From Thomasclavelia cocleata (lineage in GTDB: Bacteria; Bacillota_I; Bacilli_A; Erysipelotrichales; Coprobacillaceae), in assembly GCF_900102365.1 (NCBI RefSeq), contig NZ_FOIN01000024.1, positions 1 to 36,979 on the forward strand: a DNA stretch of 36,979 nucleotides. The letters run 5' to 3'. Positions 8,892 to 36,979 of the stretch are shown in pieces (within the stretch, counting starts at the first letter, position 1; each line of letters starts with the position of its first letter). The position numbers and the translations under genes are program-made. The notes below the pieces were generated by a model, which searched no databases, was not told the DNA's origin, and saw only the letters and a program-made list of their open reading frames with translations.

Positions 8892-9640
8892 AGTTTTCCC
8901 CCTAATAACATTTCACTTTTTTTAATTACATAGACCTGATTATTATTTAAACATATACAATTTAACTGTCCATTTTCAAACGTTCCTAAACCACCATCAA
9001 TTCCAATTTTATCTTTATAAACTGGATCATACCAAACATCAAAACATTCACTAGTTTGACGAATATAACATGTTGGAGTATGACCAAAAATAATAATTTT
9101 ATTGTCCAAACCTTTAGACATAAAAAAATATTCCCGCATCCATGCACATTCCTCTTCTGTTTGATCATATAATCCCTTTTCAGGATTTATTCCAGCATGA
9201 AGCAATACATAATCTTGACCATTACAATTCAGTTCAACAAAAGATGGACAACTATCTATATAATCAATCATCATCTTATAAAAGGCTGCTTTTAATACTT
9301 TATAATCACATTCATTAAATGCTTGTTTATGTAAATACTGATGATAACTTGTACATGTTTTATTTCCACCATTTTGAAACCACATTCTTCTTTGAGAAGA
9401 TGTGGGATCGTCAACTTTGAAAGCATCACGCATCATAATTTCATGGTTACCTTTAATCAAATGAATATTTTTAAATTTTTGTATATAAAGATAAATTTTC
9501 AAACTATCTGGTCCCCGATCACAACAATCACCTAAAATAAACAATGTATCATCTTCACAGAAATTTATTTTTTCAAGCATTTTGATAAAAATATCATAGT
9601 GACCATGCAAATCTGAAAGTACATAAATATTATTAGGCAT
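8888..9640 (-). CDS. PPP-family serine/threonine or bis-nucleotide phosphatase
   Basis: The ATG at 9640 is preferred because GAAAGG lies 9 nt upstream; two earlier ATGs touch the ribosome site. The 250-residue protein has the full metallophosphoesterase set: SDLHG (D10, H12), GDCCDRG (37-43), GNHE (64-67), LLHAGI and FGHTP. The DRG and GNHE forms are those of the PPP superfamily (bacterial PrpA-like protein phosphatases, ApaH-like enzymes). Substrate is not evident. Its stop overlaps the start of the RpiR-family gene, so both are made together; a dephosphorylation-regulator pair is possible but unproven. Confidence 0.88.
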   Translation of the reverse strand: MPNNIYVLSDLHGHYDIFIKMLEKINFCEDDTLFILGDCCDRGPDSLKIYLYIQKFKNIHLIKGNHEIMMRDAFKVDDPTSSQRRMWFQNGGNKTCTSYHQYLHKQAFNECDYKVLKAAFYKMMIDYIDSCPSFVELNCNGQDYVLLHAGINPEKGLYDQTEEECAWMREYFFMSKGLDNKIIIFGHTPTCYIRQTSECFDVWYDPVYKDKIGIDGGLGTFENGQLNCICLNNNQVYVIKKSEMLLGGKL

Positions 9641-9657
9641 AATCATCATCCTTTCAT

Positions 9658-9698
9658 TTATAAGTTTATCACTATTTAAAAGCTTTTTAAACTTATAA
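9658..9698 (-). promoter_or_regulatory. Hairpin upstream of the phosphatase ribosome site
   Basis: A 10-bp perfect inverted repeat (9658-9667 with 9689-9698) with an inner AAAAGCTTTT palindrome lies directly before the phosphatase ribosome site and overlaps the stop of the possible small ORF upstream. It lacks a T run, so it is not a standard terminator; it may influence translation or mRNA stability. Confidence 0.35.
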
Positions 9699-9824
9699 TT
9701 TTTCTAGATGATTATCACACTTATGTTTTATGATATATGTTTTAATTTTTCTTATCATCATCCAACAAATCCAAATTCCTATTAAAAACAGTACTCCCCT
9801 TATAATATAAAATTCTTTTAACAT
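9693..9824 (-). CDS. Possible 43-residue membrane protein
   Basis: A 43-codon frame begins MLKEFYIIRGVLFLIGIWIC. It has one strong hydrophobic helix (about 5-24) followed by a basic tail (RKIKTYIIKHK), a positive-inside single-pass topology. The ribosome site is poor (AGAAGG 13 nt upstream), so the call is tentative. If real it would be the first gene of the phosphatase-regulator operon, ending about 50 nt before the phosphatase ATG. Confidence 0.35.
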   Translation of the reverse strand: MLKEFYIIRGVLFLIGIWICWMMIRKIKTYIIKHKCDNHLEKL

Positions 9825-16201: not shown

Positions 16202-19200
16202 CTATTTATTCTTTCTTTTTTTATTTCCATAAAAGATAATTGATGCAACTGCTAAACCACCTAATGAATACATCATATTTGTTGTATCTCCAGTTTTTAC
16301 ACTTACTGTTTTATCTCCTGGTTTTACTAGTGTACTAGTATCTACTGTACTTCCTAATTTTACTTCCAATCCTGCTAATGCTTTTGTTAAAGCCGATACT
16401 GCAACTTCTACTTCTTCTTTTGTTGCTTCTGGATTATTTAATACTACATTTGCTTTTTCTACCTCAGTATCTACTGCCTTTAATGATGCTGATGTATAAT
16501 TTGCTCTATTTAGCCCATTTGCTTTATTGATTAAATCTGCCAATAGATCTTTATTTGGTTTTAATCTTAAATTCACAAATGCTCTTACTAATTCACTATA
16601 TACTTCATCTACTTCTTCCTGCATTGCATTTTCGTTACCTAATACTTCATTTGCTTTTTCTAATACTGGTAACATTGCATTCCATGTTGATTCAATATAT
16701 TTATCTGATTCTAAATCATTGATTTGATCTACTTGTTTTTGTAATAATTCTTTATTTCCTTTGAAGAATTCTAACATATGCATTACATTTGCTAATCTAG
16801 TAAATGCATTATCTACTTCTTCCTGTGTTGCACTATCATTTGCATAAACTGTTTGAGCATTTTCTAATGCTGCATTGAATTCTTCTACTACTGCTGGTAC
16901 TACATTTTCTAAGCTTGCATTTTCTGCCATTTCAATTGCGATTAATAATGCAACTTTATTAGTTTCTTCAACAACTTCTGAATCTACTTCAACTAAACTA
17001 TCAATAGCATTTATTAATGCCTCTGTTGCATTAATAATCTCTACTTCTGTTGCATCTTCTTTATCAACTACTTCATCAGCAACAATTAAAGCATCACTAA
17101 ATACTTGCCAGCTTGCAGCTGTATAATATTCAGATTCATAGTTTCCTGCTATGTTAATTGCTTTTCTCAAATCTGCTTTATTATCTACTTGACGAACAGT
17201 AAATTCCGCTGCTGCTGCAAATTGTTTTGATGAATCACTAGTTCCAGCTAATGCTACAAATCTAACATAACGAGCTTTTACAGCATCAAAAGAAATTTTC
17301 TTCAATGAAGAGTTACCCTCTAAATTTCCTTCAGAAACTTTTGTGAATTCATCTGTTTCATTTTCTTTTACATATAATTCATATTCAGTAATATGCCCAT
17401 TACTTCCTGATTGTCTTGGTAAATAATCAAATTGATTAATATTGTACACTTTATTCATATCAATATCTACAGTTGCTGGTAATGCTTGATATGGTGTGTA
17501 ATTACTATGCCAGAATGTACTAGGATTATTATCAAATGCCAATGATACAGGTCCCTCAGATCCAGCTAATGGATTTTCATTATCAGATGTTACAGTAAAT
17601 CCTTGACTATCAATAATTGTATAATCTTTTCCAGCTTCACTTCCTATAGATGAAATAACTAAATTATCAATTATACCTTTAAATGAACTTGTTGTACTTC
17701 CAATTCTTTCTAATGGCAATACCATTGTTGCATATTTACCACCAGTAGAATTTTTTGATAATGTATCCACTAAAGTACCATCAACATATAACTCTGCCTT
17801 ATTTTGATATCCTTTAATTTCTAATTTTACCCATGTATCTTTTGGTAATGTATAATCAAATGAATAATCATAGCCAGTTCTTGAGAATCCTACTTTACCA
17901 GTATCTTTTTGTGCCATTTTAATTGCACCTTTATCTGACTCAAATAAAATTTGTTCACCTTCAGCATCTAGATCCATTTTTACCCAAAATGAAGCACTAT
18001 TTGTAGGTCCCATATTTTCAATTGGTGTTTCAATAAAACTTTCTCCACCATTTAATTGTAAACCTTTTGTAAACTTACCTTTTACAGTTGCCACATTTTT
18101 CTTAGTAACTACATTATATCCATTACCAGATTTATCAGTGATATCTTCTTTATTAAAATCATAATTAATTACTGTATCACTTACAGATTCAACTTTATCG
18201 AATGGATTTGAACCTGGCGCTTCTTCTAACAGCTCATTTACCTTTACTAACTCATTATAAGTCAAATCTTCACCATCGCCCCATAATTTAGATGACATAG
18301 ATGGTAATGCAGATGCAAAACGATCATAAATATCATATTCACTTATACCATTTGCTTTTCTATCAACCATATCATTCCAAATTGCATATGATGACCCTAA
18401 CATTTGTTCGGCTCCAGCAGGAATAATAGTACCACTCATGTTATTTGGTTGCCAATTATTATATAAGTTTTGGCTATTTAAATAATCATAATAGTATCCT
18501 GCTCCTGGCACCATATATAATGTACCATCAACCATATTAATTAAATCAAATCCCTGGTTATACATAGCATTAGGATTAGCCCAACCTGTATTCCAAATAT
18601 TCATCTGAACGTTTTCAGATCTAACTGGAGTAGTCCCGTTACGAGCACTTAAACTTCCCCACAAACGAACTGTACGCCCTGTATCTTGTACAAATCCTAA
18701 CATATCATCTGTATATCTACGGAAATTCTCTGCATATTTTCCATCATATTCATCAGTACCAACATTAACTATAGTATCTTGATCAAATACTGGATCATCA
18801 CCTGTCATATATTCATTAAAAATTGATTGTGTAAAAGCCAAACTTTCATCATACATTGTATCTAAATCTAAATGATCCCAATGACGTGCTACTGATGTAT
18901 CCTTCATTGCTAAATCAGGACGAACTTTGGTAAGTGCTAAAGAATGTGCAGGTGTATCAAATTCAGGAACAATATTAACTCCCATCTTTCTTGAGTCTTT
19001 AATAAAGTTACGGAATTCCTCTTTAGTATAAAATACATCTGTACTTGTCAAATCAGCTTGATTTAACCCATTATTTCCGCCTTTTTTGATATCAGATTCT
19101 AGTCTAAATCCTGAATATGCATTCAACGCATCATCTCCATAATCTTCAACCCAAATATAATTATCATTTAAATGAACTTGGAAATCATTCATTTTGTAAT

Positions 19201-20983
19201 AAGCCATATTTTTAGCTACTTCTTTTAAGAAATCTAAACTAAATGGCATTCTTCCAACATCAAGCATAAAACCACGTAACTCATACTTAGGATAATCTCG
19301 AGTTTGTCCTTGAGGAATACTGTTACTATTTTGTTTTAAAATTTGTAAAATTGATTGCACTGACCAAAAAGCTCCAGTTTTATCTACTGCTTCAACCTTA
19401 ACAATTTCATCAATTGTCATTAAATATCCTTCTTCTTTTAATCCAGCATCATTGCTTCCTAAAGTGAAATAAAAGTCATGAGCAGAAGGTATGTTACTAT
19501 AAATGACTTCAATTTCATTACCTGTTAAATCTTGGTAATCAGCTTTAAATGATTTAGCTAAATAATCTAAATCATCTTTATATTCTGGATTAATCACAAT
19601 TTTAGATTTATCACTTATTTCAAATTGACCTTCTGTTCCTACCCATTCAGCTAATTCTGGTATTACTTTTGGTTTAGCATTAACACTATCTTCAGGTGAA
19701 TGTTTACCAGGAACAGTTATTTGATAAGCATTAGTAGTCTTTTCCTGATCACCTTTTTTGATTTTGTAATTTACACTAACAGTTGTATCAACAATTGGCT
19801 GATGAATCGTTAGATCACGATCTAAAATCTGTTCATAATCAGCACCAACAAATTCAATTTCAAAACCATTAGGTACTTCTGGCATTGCCATCTTAGTGTC
19901 CCCTTTAGCAATCGCTGGAATTACCAGATTAGTAATAACACTATCAATTGTTTGTTCTGGTTCAACATCTACTTGTTGTTTAACTGAATATGCTTCAAAT
20001 TCATATAAAGAAACAGTTGCCCAAGATACAGTTTTATCATCACGATCTGGTGCAGAATCAACAAAATCTGTTACTAACACTCTTATATAACGTGTATTTA
20101 TTGTATTATCAAAATTAATAACATCATCAAATTTAGCAGGTGCACTAGTTAAAACTTTTACATCTTCCCAATTACTACCATCATTAGAAGATTGAATTTT
20201 ATAATTAGTTGCATTACAACGTTCCCACTTTAAAGTTACAGATGCAACATCTTTAACACTGCCAAAATCTAAACTTACCCATTTATTGTCATTATGACCA
20301 ACTGTACTAGCCCAACGAGTAGCCATGTCTTCATCTTTAACATTATCAACAACTAAGTTAGCAGCTTCATCTCCACTTGAAGCAGCAGTTGCATTTAGGG
20401 CTAGATTTTCATGAGTTTCCTCACCTAAGATTTCAAATTCATATAATGATACTGAAGCCCAATTAATATCTCCACCATCATATTTATCTACTGTTAATTT
20501 TACATATCGTGCCAAAACACTACTTTCCAATACGATTTCAGTAGTTAAACTTGGAATATTTGTATCATCTGGTTTTGTATATACAGTTGTATAATTTTCA
20601 CCATCATTAGAAATAGCAATATTATAACCCTTAATATTTGTTCTTTCCCATTCTATTTTAAATTCACTAAATGATTTTTCAGATCCTAAATCAACTGTCA
20701 AAATTTTTGGTGTTGTCCCAACATTAGTTGACCAGCGAGATTGGTCTGGTTTTGCTGCATCTCGATTCACTATCCCATCAATCGCTTTATCTCCACCCCA
20801 GTAATTAGTTTCTGAATCATTTACTGTAGCAGTACCTTGCAATGCGTGATTTACCTTAGTTGTAATACTCGCAGGAGCAACTGGATTATTTGCAAAAACC
20901 ATTATTCCTGGTACTAATGTACTTACTGACATAGAAGCTGTCAGTGCCGATACTAAAACTTTCTTTTTCAAATTTTTCTGCAT
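16202..20983 (-). CDS. Cell-wall-anchored GH20 beta-N-acetylhexosaminidase with F5/8C, LamG and FIVAR modules
   Basis: ATG at 20983 (AAGGAG 7 nt upstream) gives 1593 residues. There is a signal peptide (KKKVLVSALTASMSVSTLVPG, cut near ANN at about 32). Two F5/8 type C discoidin-like domains (about 40-190 and 195-330) come next, then an Ig-like segment (340-430) and a GH20b domain (430-560). The GH20 barrel (about 565-880) carries the catalytic pair D744-E745 in NVGTDEY. Then come a LamG-like domain (910-1090), a third F5/8C (1095-1240), several FIVAR helical repeats (1245-1540), and a sorting tail with VKTGD (1562-1566), a membrane helix and KKRKNK. It should release terminal GlcNAc/GalNAc from host glycans at the cell surface. 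The acid pair is kept, but the usual HxGGDE reads NVGTDE. Expression is controlled by the RAT leader upstream. Confidence 0.92.
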   Translation of the reverse strand: MQKNLKKKVLVSALTASMSVSTLVPGIMVFANNPVAPASITTKVNHALQGTATVNDSETNYWGGDKAIDGIVNRDAAKPDQSRWSTNVGTTPKILTVDLGSEKSFSEFKIEWERTNIKGYNIAISNDGENYTTVYTKPDDTNIPSLTTEIVLESSVLARYVKLTVDKYDGGDINWASVSLYEFEILGEETHENLALNATAASSGDEAANLVVDNVKDEDMATRWASTVGHNDNKWVSLDFGSVKDVASVTLKWERCNATNYKIQSSNDGSNWEDVKVLTSAPAKFDDVINFDNTINTRYIRVLVTDFVDSAPDRDDKTVSWATVSLYEFEAYSVKQQVDVEPEQTIDSVITNLVIPAIAKGDTKMAMPEVPNGFEIEFVGADYEQILDRDLTIHQPIVDTTVSVNYKIKKGDQEKTTNAYQITVPGKHSPEDSVNAKPKVIPELAEWVGTEGQFEISDKSKIVINPEYKDDLDYLAKSFKADYQDLTGNEIEVIYSNIPSAHDFYFTLGSNDAGLKEEGYLMTIDEIVKVEAVDKTGAFWSVQSILQILKQNSNSIPQGQTRDYPKYELRGFMLDVGRMPFSLDFLKEVAKNMAYYKMNDFQVHLNDNYIWVEDYGDDALNAYSGFRLESDIKKGGNNGLNQADLTSTDVFYTKEEFRNFIKDSRKMGVNIVPEFDTPAHSLALTKVRPDLAMKDTSVARHWDHLDLDTMYDESLAFTQSIFNEYMTGDDPVFDQDTIVNVGTDEYDGKYAENFRRYTDDMLGFVQDTGRTVRLWGSLSARNGTTPVRSENVQMNIWNTGWANPNAMYNQGFDLINMVDGTLYMVPGAGYYYDYLNSQNLYNNWQPNNMSGTIIPAGAEQMLGSSYAIWNDMVDRKANGISEYDIYDRFASALPSMSSKLWGDGEDLTYNELVKVNELLEEAPGSNPFDKVESVSDTVINYDFNKEDITDKSGNGYNVVTKKNVATVKGKFTKGLQLNGGESFIETPIENMGPTNSASFWVKMDLDAEGEQILFESDKGAIKMAQKDTGKVGFSRTGYDYSFDYTLPKDTWVKLEIKGYQNKAELYVDGTLVDTLSKNSTGGKYATMVLPLERIGSTTSSFKGIIDNLVISSIGSEAGKDYTIIDSQGFTVTSDNENPLAGSEGPVSLAFDNNPSTFWHSNYTPYQALPATVDIDMNKVYNINQFDYLPRQSGSNGHITEYELYVKENETDEFTKVSEGNLEGNSSLKKISFDAVKARYVRFVALAGTSDSSKQFAAAAEFTVRQVDNKADLRKAINIAGNYESEYYTAASWQVFSDALIVADEVVDKEDATEVEIINATEALINAIDSLVEVDSEVVEETNKVALLIAIEMAENASLENVVPAVVEEFNAALENAQTVYANDSATQEEVDNAFTRLANVMHMLEFFKGNKELLQKQVDQINDLESDKYIESTWNAMLPVLEKANEVLGNENAMQEEVDEVYSELVRAFVNLRLKPNKDLLADLINKANGLNRANYTSASLKAVDTEVEKANVVLNNPEATKEEVEVAVSALTKALAGLEVKLGSTVDTSTLVKPGDKTVSVKTGDTTNMMYSLGGLAVASIIFYGNKKRKNK
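16514..16586 (-). repeat. FIVAR/anchor module copy shared with the gene at 36536
   Basis: These 73 bp match 36848-36920 at 68 positions by my count, both encoding LRLKPNKDLLADLINKANGL. Similarity continues more weakly to the sorting signals (TVDTST, VKPGD, VKTGD). It indicates duplication or recombination of C-terminal modules between surface proteins. Confidence 0.8.
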
Positions 20984-21018
20984 TCTTTTTCTCCTTTCAA
21001 CAGTTACTAAAAATAAAA

Positions 21019-21058
21019 ACCAGATACTAGAATACAAAAAAATGTATTAGTATCTGGT
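21019..21058 (-). terminator. Leader terminator of the GH20 gene
   Basis: A stem of about 16 bp (21019-21036 with 21043-21058, one 2-nt bulge) is followed on the minus strand by a T-rich run (TTTTTATTTTT) before the GH20 ribosome site. It lies inside the 5' leader, so it must be overcome for expression. Its 5' arm overlaps the end of the RAT. Confidence 0.85.
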
Positions 21059-26347: not shown

Positions 26348-27129
26348 TTATCCAATATCATCAACAGTAATGTCAAATTCTAAATTTAAAAGCTGTTTAC
26401 ATAAATCAATATAAATATCCTGCTCATTTAAACAAGTTTCCAGCAAGTATGTCTTATCTCTGTCATATTCTTTCAGTCCCCTTAGATAATATGGTTTATC
26501 CCTATCAAGAATAAAAAAAGGAACTATATTGTTCTTTAAACATTCTTTAAACATTCTTTAAAGATAATTGCTCGTCCAATACGACCATTCCCATCACCAA
26601 ATGGATGAATTCTCTCAAAACGTAAATGAAATTCAACAATATCTTCTAAAGTTATTTTACTTTGCTTGGTATAATTGCTAATAAGCATATCTATATCTTT
26701 TTCAACTTCGTCTGGTTTTGAGGTTTTAATAGCATTTACCAGCACAATTACATTGGGATGTATTTTAAATCCTCCTACATTATATCTAGGATTAGATTCA
26801 TCAGAGGTTCCTTTTTTAAGAATTTTATTCATTTCAATAATCATATCTTTATTTAATTCATCATCAACATGATCTAAAATAAAATCAAATAATTTAAAAT
26901 GATTTACTGTTTCCATGATATCATCTACTCTGACTACCTCATCATCTTTATCAGAAAAAAATGAATTAGTTTCAAATATCATTTCCGTTTGTTCTTCTGT
27001 TAATCGGCTACCTTCTATTTTATTTGAATTATATGCAAATAATACTTGTGAAACATGATAGATGTTACCAGGAAATTTTGATTCTTTCTGTTCTATGAGT
27101 TCCTTTTTTAATTTTTCTATATCTGTCAT
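26348..27129 (-). pseudogene. Fic-family AMP-transferase gene, frameshifted by an 11-bp duplication
   Basis: ATG at 27129 (AGGAG 7-8 nt upstream). The first 196 residues carry the inhibitory motif SNKIEG (35-40; class II S/TxxxE(G/N), E39) and the complete Fic loop HPFGDGNGRIGR (175-186). Eight codons later the frame meets TAA. The C-terminal 60 or so residues (NNIVPFFILDRDKPYYLRG and on) continue in another frame. Between them an 11-bp unit is repeated; removing one unit gives 771 bp, an intact frame of 256 residues. Fic proteins AMPylate targets such as GTPases, gyrase or EF-Tu. The break lies after the active site, so the shortened protein might keep some activity. Confidence 0.85.
26541..26562. 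repeat. 11-bp tandem duplication breaking fic
   Basis: Two perfect copies of CATTCTTTAAA (26541-26551, 26552-26562), with a 9-bp partial third copy at 26532-26540. Slipped-strand replication explains it and could reverse it. Confidence 0.9.
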
Positions 27130-27600
27130 TTTCAATCTCCTATACTTAGGTTATAAGTATATCACTTTAAATATAAAATGTAACAGAAATTAATTATTCT
27201 TGTAAAAGAGGCAAAATGCCCAAATAGACTATAAAAGAAACTTATTTTAGTATTTAAGAAGATATGAAAAGATAGTCAAAAAAACATATATAAATATAAT
27301 GTTCTAAATATGCCTAATAATCATCTTTAAATTCTAATAGCATAAAACAAGTATTTATATGATACCTGTTTAATAAAAATCTTGAATCTTAGTAATAATA
27401 TCATTAGATTAAAAAATATTTTTAAATCACAAATTCATAATTAAAAACTTTAAGTCATTTAAATTTATTCAGCAAAATTTAACCCTCTTATTACTTATCT
27501 CATTATTAAACATTATATTAGTAATCATTTTTTATAATATATTATAAATCTAAGTTACATTATTACTATCATAATTCTAATTATCTATTATTATTTCACA
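27130..27600. other. 471-bp AT-rich gap upstream of fic
   Basis: No open frame with a ribosome site, hairpin with T run, or clear repeat was found. It presumably includes the fic promoter at its left end. Confidence 0.4.
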
Positions 27601-27627
27601 AAAAAATCAGCTATTTGCTGATTTTTT
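27601..27627 (-). terminator. Terminator of the small-peptide operon
   Basis: An 11-bp perfect stem AAAAAATCAGC/GCTGATTTTTT with a 5-nt loop overlaps the stop codon of the 33-residue gene. Confidence 0.88.
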
Positions 27628-27727
27628 ATTCCTGAGCATTAGAAGCATCAGGATATTCATTATCGTATTCTACAATATGATTTTCATAATCAATTTCATC
27701 TTGATCTTTTAATTCTTTACGTTTCAC
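27626..27727 (-). CDS. Small acidic 33-residue protein
   Basis: GTG start with GGGTGAT 5 nt upstream; the frame opens only after a TAA two codons before. The product begins MKRKELKDQDEIDYEN and is rich in Asp/Glu, with no hydrophobic stretch. It follows the 40-residue membrane peptide by 29 bp and is bounded by a strong terminator, supporting a two-gene operon. A cytoplasmic partner of the membrane peptide is a guess. Confidence 0.6.
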   Translation of the reverse strand: MKRKELKDQDEIDYENHIVEYDNEYPDASNAQE

Positions 27728-27756
27728 TAGTTATCACCCAATTATAGTATGTCCCA

Positions 27757-27879
27757 TTATAAAATAATTAAATCAACTAAATAAGTACTTAGATTAGCAA
27801 TCACCGATCCTAATACTAGAACACCTACTATAATTGTAAATATTCCTTTACCAGTCAAATTAAAATCTTTATACTCCAT
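27757..27879 (-). CDS. Single-pass 40-residue membrane peptide
   Basis: ATG with a strong ACGGAGG ribosome site 8 nt upstream. The product starts MEYKDFNLTGKGIFTIIVG and forms one long hydrophobic helix (about 13-29), then a second short hydrophobic patch at the end. It has a clear promoter (27962-27990) with repeated operator-like sites and is divergent from an S24-type repressor. Small membrane peptides beside LexA-like regulators can act as damage-induced growth or division inhibitors; that role is inference. Confidence 0.7.
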   Translation of the reverse strand: MEYKDFNLTGKGIFTIIVGVLVLGSVIANLSTYLVDLIIL

Positions 27880-27941
27880 AATTATTTCCTCCGTTATCAA
27901 GTATCTATAAATTCATCTTTTTAAGTATTTTCTTTTATCGG

Positions 27942-27959
27942 TATCTTTTTAAGACACTT
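27942..27959. promoter_or_regulatory. Operator-like repeat O1
   Basis: TATCTTTTTAAGACACTT, a quasi-palindrome (GTATCTT-TTT-AAGACAC when the preceding G is included), covers the expected start site of the small-peptide transcript. An identical copy is 56 bp to the right, and a shorter relative (ATCTTTTTAAG) is at 27915-27925. Confidence 0.7.
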
Positions 27960-27961
27960 AT

Positions 27962-27990
27962 AATATATCTCTTTTACTATTATTTGTCAA
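27962..27990 (-). promoter_or_regulatory. Promoter of the small-peptide operon
   Basis: A perfect TTGACA (27985-27990) and TATATT (27962-27967) 17 bp apart on the minus strand, flanked on each side by O1 and O2. Confidence 0.75.
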
Positions 27991-27997
27991 CAAAAAA

Positions 27998-28015
27998 TAT
28001 CTTTTTAAGACACTT
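27998..28015. promoter_or_regulatory. Operator-like repeat O2
   Basis: An identical 18-bp copy of O1 lies just upstream of the -35 of the small-peptide promoter and 13 bp before the -35 of the repressor promoter, so one bound repressor could affect both. Confidence 0.7.
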
Positions 28016-28028
28016 TCAAAGAAAATAA

Positions 28029-28057
28029 TTGCAAAAATAATCTAATAATAGTAAAAT
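28029..28057 (+). promoter_or_regulatory. Promoter of the S24 repressor gene
   Basis: TTGCAA (28029-28034) and TAAAAT (28052-28057) 17 bp apart. Confidence 0.6.
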
Positions 28058-28079
28058 CAAGACATAAGGAGTGAGTAGA

Positions 28080-28697
28080 ATGACAGGTGAAAGAATTAAA
28101 AAATTACGTAAAGAAAAAGGCTTAACCCAAGAACAGTTAGGTAAATTATTAGGAGTCAAAAAATCAGCTATCGCTAAATATGAAAATAACCGAGTTGAAA
28201 ACTTAAAAAAAGAAACTATTCAAAAATTATCAGATATATTTAATGTTCCTGCTTCATACTTTCTAGGAATTGAAGAAAATCAGCCCATAATTACTAATTC
28301 AATAACTATTCCTCTATACAATGATATTAGTTGTGGAACTGGAATATTTGTTGATGATAATATTGATGAATATATTTCATTACCAGAATCATTGTTATCA
28401 TTAAATAAAGAATATTTTTGTCAATACGCTAGTGGTGATAGCATGATTGGTGAAAATATCAATCCTGGTGATTTAATTGTTTTTGAAAAATGTAGTCAAA
28501 TTAGAAATGGCGAGATTGGTTGTTTTACAATTGACGATAATGTTGCAACATGCAAAAAATTTTATTTAGATAGTACTAATCAATGTATAATTCTACAACC
28601 TGCTAATCCAGATTATAATCCATTAGTAATTAACAATGATAATCAAATAGGATTTCGAGTAATAGGTAAATTAAGTTTAGTAATTAATAAACGATAA
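28080..28697 (+). CDS. XRE-S24 (HdiR/LexA/CI-like) self-cleaving repressor
   Basis: ATG at 28080 has AAGGAG 8 nt upstream. The 205-residue protein has an XRE helix-turn-helix (3-60; LTQEQLGKLLGVKKSAIAKYENN) and a C-terminal S24 peptidase-like domain with Ser121 in ASGDSM and a Lys at 159 in NVATCKKFY as the catalytic dyad. The probable self-cleavage bond is Cys85-Gly86 in DISCGTG, the C-G type seen in UmuD. Such repressors cleave themselves when RecA is activated by DNA damage. It resembles Lactococcus HdiR. No phage genes surround it; the divergent two small genes with shared operator-like repeats are the likely targets. Confidence 0.9.
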   Translation: MTGERIKKLRKEKGLTQEQLGKLLGVKKSAIAKYENNRVENLKKETIQKLSDIFNVPASYFLGIEENQPIITNSITIPLYNDISCGTGIFVDDNIDEYISLPESLLSLNKEYFCQYASGDSMIGENINPGDLIVFEKCSQIRNGEIGCFTIDDNVATCKKFYLDSTNQCIILQPANPDYNPLVINNDNQIGFRVIGKLSLVINKR

Positions 28698-36510: not shown

Positions 36511-36539
36511 AATTTATCATACCCTAAATAGTTTGTCAA
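36511..36539 (-). promoter_or_regulatory. Promoter of the T-box/ABC operon
   Basis: A perfect TTGACA (36534-36539) and TAAATT (36511-36516) 17 bp apart on the minus strand. The -35 overlaps the stop codon (36536-36538) of the upstream surface-protein gene. Confidence 0.75.
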
Positions 36540-36979
36540 CTGCATTTCTTTTTCTTAGCAGCAATTAATGAAATCATCAATGCTATACTTGCCATTAAAC
36601 CATAGGCAGGTACTTCATCACCTGTCTTTACTGCATTTGCTGTTGTATCTCCAGGTTTTACTGGTGTACTAGTATCTACTGTATTTCCTGGTTTTGCTAC
36701 TAATCCTTCAAGGGCTTTTGTTAAAGCTTTCTCGGCAGCTTTTACTTCTGCCTCACTTGCTTCTGGATCTTCTAATACTGCCTGTGCTTTTATTACTTCA
36801 TTTTCTACTACTGCCCATGTATTAGCTGTATAACTTGCAGCATTTAACCCATTTGCCTTATTGATTAAATCTGCCAATAAATCTTTATTTGGTTTTAATC
36901 TTAAGTTCAAATATGCTCTTGTTAATGCATCACATGCTTCATCTACTTCTGCCTGTGTTGCTTTTTCATTTCCTAATAC
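36536..36979 (-). CDS. FIVAR-containing sortase-anchored surface protein, C-terminal fragment (5' end outside window)
   Basis: The frame is open to the window edge, giving the last 147 residues. It holds the end of one FIVAR repeat (VLGNEKATQAEVDEACDAL), another complete one (NKDLLADLINKANGLNAAS to LTKALEGL), a Pro/Thr spacer (TVDTSTPVKPGD) and a sorting tail with VKTGD, a hydrophobic helix and KKKKCS. It is very similar to the end of the GH20 protein at 16202, so it is probably another glycan-active or adhesive wall protein. No terminator separates it from the downstream T-box promoter, so read-through into that leader is possible. Confidence 0.88.
   Translation of the reverse strand, partial: VLGNEKATQAEVDEACDALTRAYLNLRLKPNKDLLADLINKANGLNAASYTANTWAVVENEVIKAQAVLEDPEASEAEVKAAEKALTKALEGLVAKPGNTVDTSTPVKPGDTTANAVKTGDEVPAYGLMASIALMISLIAAKKKKCS
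36848..36920 (-). repeat. FIVAR/anchor module copy shared with the GH20 gene
   Basis: Partner of 16514-16586, with five differences in 73 bp. The low divergence at third positions suggests recent duplication or gene conversion. Confidence 0.8.

What the first reader, a model, noticed from the sequence alone, without database searches (positions are those of the whole stretch)
27626..28697. LexA/HdiR-like repressor divergent from a membrane peptide and an acidic peptide with shared repeated operators
Seen: an XRE-S24 gene with a Ser121/Lys159 dyad and a Cys-Gly cleavage site; two unannotated tiny frames (40 and 33 codons) with good ribosome sites and a common terminator; a TTGACA-17-TATATT promoter flanked by two identical 18-bp quasi-palindromes, with a third partial copy in the leader. 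Known: S24 repressors self-cleave on DNA damage. Inference: this is a damage-inducible small-peptide module outside any prophage, perhaps a growth or division brake. I know of no description of this trio.
Basis: partly seen in the sequence, partly recalled or inferred. Interest (0 to 1): 0.75.

Follow-up and report, generated by a model that had tools for sequence, protein, structure and literature searches.

The report
Domesticated phage switch controlling membrane peptide
Gut bacteria of two related genera that appear to lack the usual DNA-damage master repressor keep a phage-type, self-cleaving repressor whose only visible targets are itself and a tiny membrane peptide made in the opposite direction, probably a minimal DNA-damage alarm.

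Summary
The window is from a Thomasclavelia-type genome. At 28080-28697 there is an XRE-S24 repressor with Ser121/Lys159 and Cys85-Gly86. Divergent from it lie a 40-aa membrane peptide and a 33-aa acidic peptide, with two operators around their promoter. All three genes and both operators are conserved in 9/9 genomes of the genus. Repressor, membrane peptide and operators are also in Faecalibacillus, at a different chromosomal site; the acidic peptide is not. Both small frames are under coding selection (pN/pS 0.41 and 0.30, lost when the frame is shifted). Exact operators occur nowhere else in the nine genomes, recA has none, and no full canonical LexA was found in the genus. The core repressors form one clade (100/98) among prophage-type S24 repressors; peptide paralogues sit in prophage and mobile-element regions. 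Best reading: a domesticated phage switch, de-repressed on DNA damage, whose output is a small membrane peptide. The same architecture was published in 2026 for FddR in Francisella (PMC13148647), so this is a new variant of a known kind. Peptide function (division brake, depolarising toxin, phage exclusion) is not settled by sequence.

The parts
28080..28697 (+). XRE-S24 self-cleaving repressor, 205 aa, Ser121/Lys159 dyad, Cys85-Gly86 cleavage site
   Evidence: Pfam, alignment to LexA/UmuD of known structure, invariant residues in orthologues
27757..27879 (-). 40-aa single-span membrane peptide MEYKDFNLTGKGIFTIIVGVLVLGSVIANLSTYLVDLIIL
   Evidence: conserved in 9/9 genus genomes and in Faecalibacillus; pN/pS 0.41 in frame, 0.88 and 1.66 when shifted; 19-residue hydropathy up to 2.35
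27626..27727 (-). 33-aa acidic peptide, GTG start, conserved C-terminus SNAQE, net charge about -7
   Evidence: 9/9 genus genomes, absent elsewhere in the family; pN/pS 0.30 in frame, 0.95 and 1.24 when shifted
27941..27957 (.). operator 1, GTATCTTTTTAAGACAC, just downstream of the -10 of the peptide promoter
27997..28013 (.). operator 2, ATATCTTTTTAAGACAC, just upstream of the -35 of the peptide promoter; centre 56 bp from operator 1
27962..27990 (-). promoter of the small-peptide operon, TTGACA-17-TATATT, between the two operators
   Evidence: sequence; conserved in the alignment
28029..28057 (+). probable promoter of the repressor, TTGCAA-17-TAAAAT
   Evidence: sequence; the -10 region AATAGTAAAAT is conserved; inference
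28058..28065 (+). conserved operator half-site (CAAGACAT here, TAAGACAC in relatives) at the repressor's transcription start/RBS
27901..27917 (-). conserved leader element GTATCTATAAATTCATC (+ strand) upstream of the membrane-peptide RBS
27600..27626 (-). intrinsic terminator of the small-peptide operon

Best explanation
The locus is a domesticated phage-type genetic switch. Shown here: the parts, their conservation and their phage affinity. Inferred: the repressor dimerises and binds operators 1 and 2, which flank the peptide promoter, and the half-site at its own start, silencing the small operon and limiting itself. When DNA damage builds RecA filaments, the S24 domain cuts the Cys85-Gly86 bond, the repressor is lost, and a burst of 40-aa membrane peptide (with the acidic peptide in Thomasclavelia) is made. 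Restored repressor shuts it again. In a lineage without a full canonical LexA this would be a one-locus DNA-damage response. The peptide is most likely a membrane-embedded brake on division or envelope growth, as SosA, YneA and SidA are. My confidence is about 0.75 that it is such a switch and 0.4 for the brake given the switch; the figure given is for a damage-responsive switch with the membrane peptide as its main output.
For: Repressor orthologues in 9/9 Thomasclavelia genomes at 80-100% identity and in Faecalibacillus at about 67%. The core clade of 14 has 100/98 support, apart from prophage-type S24 repressors. Divergence tracks RecA, r 0.52, Mantel p 0.0018. The membrane peptide accompanies all 14 core repressors, one of them across a contig break. 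Two operators score 15-27 bits at this locus in the genomes compared, and exact matches occur only here in the nine genus genomes. Other near matches read out lie mostly inside unrelated genes. No full canonical LexA in the genus; in complete genome G006 this is the only S24 repressor, the other S24 hits having signal-peptidase-like sequences. Dyad and cleavage site align with LexA and UmuD. Peptide paralogues lie in a prophage early region with exonuclease- and RecT-like genes and in other mobile elements. Precedent: FddR, an S24 phage repressor with operator GTG-N11-CAC, up-regulated by ciprofloxacin with its divergent gene (PMC13148647). SosA is divergent from lexA and blocks division (PMC6851548).
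Against: No binding, cleavage or induction data. Related IrvR of Streptococcus mutans self-cleaves without RecA (PMC7101444), so an S24 domain does not prove a DNA-damage input. The peptide has no extracellular domain; YneA cut down to its TM segment does not block division (PMC13396833). The cleavage bond is Cys-Gly, as in UmuD, not Ala-Gly as in LexA and FddR. recA carries no operator, so the circuit does not amplify its own signal.
Confidence: 0.6

Rival explanations
1. Membrane-depolarising persistence toxin: the peptide is a TisB-like pore or depolariser released by damage, and the acidic peptide, where present, tempers it.
For: Size and single hydrophobic span; co-oriented acidic partner; SOS control of such peptides has precedent (own knowledge of TisB).
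Against: No antisense RNA was looked for; Faecalibacillus keeps the peptide without the acidic partner; Asp36 is invariant within the hydrophobic end.
Confidence: 0.2
2. Anti-phage function: a retained prophage immunity region whose early membrane peptide excludes or aborts infection by related phages, released when an infecting phage triggers RecA.
For: Repressor clusters with prophage-type repressors; peptide paralogues sit in prophage early and mobile-element regions.
Against: Constant retention in 14 genomes of two genera and tracking of RecA are unlike the patchiness usual for defence genes; no PHROG, NCBIfam or Pfam family matched the peptide; PADLOC was not scanned.
Confidence: 0.2
3. 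RecA-independent stress switch, as in IrvR: the repressor self-cleaves at a basal rate and is set by proteolysis or another stress, not by DNA damage.
For: IrvR precedent in a LexA-like protein (PMC7101444).
Against: All known catalytic features are intact; FddR, a closer parallel in layout, is induced by ciprofloxacin.
Confidence: 0.15
4. Chance frames: the small ORFs are not genes and only the repressor autoregulates.
For: They are very short and match no library family.
Against: Conservation in 9/9 genus genomes and frame-specific purifying selection.
Confidence: 0.02

Closest known systems
FddR unit of Francisella (PMC13148647)
   Same: HTH_3 + Peptidase_S24 repressor of phage descent outside any prophage, palindromic operator of 17 bp (GTG-N11-CAC; here GTR-N11-CAC), regulon dominated by itself and a divergent gene of unknown function, lineage without a canonical LexA orchestrating SOS genes
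   Different: different phylum, 40-aa membrane peptide (plus acidic peptide) instead of the Francisella gene, two operators around one promoter, Cys-Gly instead of Ala-Gly cleavage bond; direct orthology not tested
lexA-sosA (Staphylococcus) and lexA-yneA (Bacillus)
   Same: damage-type repressor next to a small single-span membrane protein gene; divergent in the lexA-sosA pair
   Different: repressor is not canonical LexA; peptide is 40 aa against 77 for SosA and has no LysM or extracellular domain; no sequence relation tested; function unknown
HdiR of lactococci and streptococci
   Same: non-canonical LexA-like S24 repressor, placed with phage repressors in COG2932 (PMC13148647)
   Different: orthology not tested; regulon here appears to be one locus
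Prophage cI-type repressors with divergent early promoter
   Same: architecture and S24 clade; a paralogue at 50% identity beside phage genes in the same genome
   Different: no phage genes around; conserved chromosomal position within the genus

Membership tests
FddR-type co-opted phage repressor unit | HTH_3 plus Peptidase_S24 with Ser-Lys dyad | tested here: met
FddR-type co-opted phage repressor unit | Ala-Gly cleavage bond | tested here: not met
   Cys85-Gly86 at the aligned position; UmuD uses Cys-Gly
FddR-type co-opted phage repressor unit | operator GTG-N11-CAC in the shared promoter region | tested here: inconclusive
   same 17-bp length and CAC half; window sites are GTA/ATA-N11-CAC, some orthologues exactly GTG-N11-CAC
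FddR-type co-opted phage repressor unit | regulon is itself plus a divergent gene | tested here: met
   by sequence only: exact operators only at this locus in nine genomes; other sites mostly inside genes
FddR-type co-opted phage repressor unit | sequence orthology to Francisella FddR | not tested
   Francisella sequence was not compared; different phylum and different divergent gene, so it is filed as working like FddR, not as FddR
FddR-type co-opted phage repressor unit | induced by DNA damage | not testable with these tools
   needs RNA measurement
Canonical LexA | LexA_DNA_bind domain (PF01726) and control of recA | tested here: not met
   HTH_3 type N-terminus; PF01726 not found in the own genome; recA without operator
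SosA/YneA-type SOS division inhibitor | single-span membrane protein encoded beside the damage repressor and under its control | tested here: inconclusive
   layout, operators and hydropathy fit; control not measured
SosA/YneA-type SOS division inhibitor | extracellular C-terminal part required for activity | tested here: not met
   peptide ends at the membrane, 36-45 aa in all members
Type I toxin-antitoxin peptide | antisense or cis RNA antitoxin | not tested
   no RNA search was run on the locus

The most novel reading that the evidence does not exclude
Thomasclavelia and Faecalibacillus lost LexA and live with a minimal one-locus SOS response: a captured phage repressor whose only output is a new family of about 40-aa membrane peptides that halts division or growth during DNA damage.
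Probability: 0.35. Interest if true: 0.7.

Novelty: new variant of a known kind. Interest (0 to 1): 0.5.

Why it matters
It would be a second case (after Francisella FddR) of a phage repressor captured as a DNA-damage sensor where canonical LexA is missing, here in common gut Bacillota and with a small membrane peptide as output. It gives the FddR hypothesis, that SOS networks can be rebuilt from self-contained divergent units, a test in another phylum, and it supplies an uncharacterised small-protein family with a clear regulatory handle.

Tried and rejected
Operator regulon beyond the locus: near matches in own and relative genomes were read out; most lie inside unrelated genes, a few between genes without a shared target. 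SOS-box and operator scan around recA: nothing. Known family for either peptide: none in Pfam, PHROGs or NCBIfam. tblastn of the peptide in phages and plasmids: no match. Peptide elsewhere: order-wide (316 genomes) and in a phylum-wide sample (392 genomes) only the same two genera. Literature on the damage response in these genera: none found in the held library. Structure prediction was not run, since the dyad and cleavage site were already placed by alignment to solved LexA.

Full report
The window lies in a genome (G000:C79) whose nearest named relatives are Thomasclavelia (T. saccharogumia, An173 and others) and then Faecalibacillus. The repressor at 28080-28697 + carries HTH_3 and Peptidase_S24 domains; its catalytic serine and lysine and the Cys-Gly bond align with LexA and UmuD of known structure and are invariant in twelve orthologues.

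Conservation. Orthologues of the repressor are in 9/9 genomes of the genus and in five Faecalibacillus genomes. The membrane peptide is divergent from the repressor in all 14; in one draft genome the two parts lie at the edges of two contigs. Invariant residues in the alignment of 15 peptides are Met1, Gly12, Thr15 and Asp36. Comparing eight genus copies, pN/pS is 0.41 in frame and 0.88 or 1.66 in the shifted frames, with differences concentrated in the third codon position. The acidic peptide is in 9/9 genus genomes, with pN/pS 0.30 in frame, and in no other genome of the family beyond one weak hit inside a long frame. In Faecalibacillus the unit sits beside pyruvate kinase and, in some, a DegV-type gene; in Thomasclavelia it sits beside a Cof-type HAD hydrolase. 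So repressor, peptide and operators stay together although the position differs.

Operators. The 17-bp consensus is GTDTCTTTWWAAGACAC. One copy lies just after the -10 and one just before the -35 of the peptide promoter, start-to-start 55-58 bp apart. An operator half, TTAAGACAC in most relatives, overlaps the repressor's own start. Exact matches to the search pattern in the nine genus genomes are all at this locus. The near matches that were read out are mostly inside genes for unrelated functions. recA has no operator and no classical SOS box within the fetched region.

LexA status. The LexA DNA-binding domain (PF01726) was not found in the own genome. In the genus only three genomes have hits over the cut-off: in two it is a frame of 96 aa or less without an S24 domain, in one it is just over the cut-off. 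In complete genome G006 the S24 hits are this repressor and two proteins whose sequence reads as signal peptidases. This is an HMM-level absence; a strongly diverged LexA cannot be ruled out.

Origin. A tree of 33 S24 repressors puts all core copies in one clade (100/98), among repressors of prophage or mobile-element type; no LexA outgroup was included, and the mobile origin of most of the other rows was not checked one by one. A 50% identical copy in the same genome lies beside phage genes. Distances within the core clade track RecA, which fits vertical inheritance. Peptide paralogues occur in a prophage early region with exonuclease- and RecT-like genes, and in mobile elements with ParA/ParB-like or integrase genes (assignments from reading the sequences, not from a domain search). 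The simplest history is that a phage switch, repressor plus first early gene, was kept after the rest was lost; that is inference.

Mechanism. Repression by binding both operators, cleavage on RecA filaments, and a burst of peptide are inferred from architecture and from the published behaviour of FddR (PMC13148647). What the peptide does is open. SosA and YneA are small single-span division inhibitors encoded beside lexA, but YneA reduced to its membrane segment does not block division, and our peptide has no outer domain; the very short SidA of Caulobacter is the better parallel (named in PMC13396833; its small size is own knowledge). A depolarising toxin or a phage-exclusion peptide remain live rivals.

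Novelty. The regulatory idea is published for Francisella. New here are the lineage, the coupling to a membrane-peptide family without a family model, the paired operators, and the genus-specific acidic peptide.

Noticed in passing
window 26536-27135 (-): Fic/DOC family protein (Pfam E 3.3e-13) with HPFGDGNGRIGR motif next to the module; the corresponding place in T. saccharogumia (L065) holds a RpiR-type regulator and PTS genes instead.
   Followed up: no
window 36536-36910 (-) and 16202-21037 (-): The ORF at the window end repeats the C-terminal part of the 1611-aa hexosaminidase-like ORF, suggesting a second large surface protein cut by the contig end.
   Followed up: no
L116, L119 (G002:C148, C141): Two identical copies of a 45-aa relative of the membrane peptide beside large ORFs that look like conjugative-element genes, on short contigs.
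   Followed up: partly
L166 around 9580-9700 (G030:C2:102583-102690): A 36-aa relative of the membrane peptide in a prophage early region between an excisionase-like gene and YqaJ/RecT-like genes, with no S24 repressor seen nearby.
   Followed up: partly
window 27901-27917: Leader element GTATCTATAAATTCATC upstream of the peptide RBS is conserved across both genera although it is not a full operator; role unexplained.
   Followed up: partly
L164/L165 (G007:C172): recA reads as two pieces with an internal TGA in this draft genome; may be a sequencing error.
   Followed up: no
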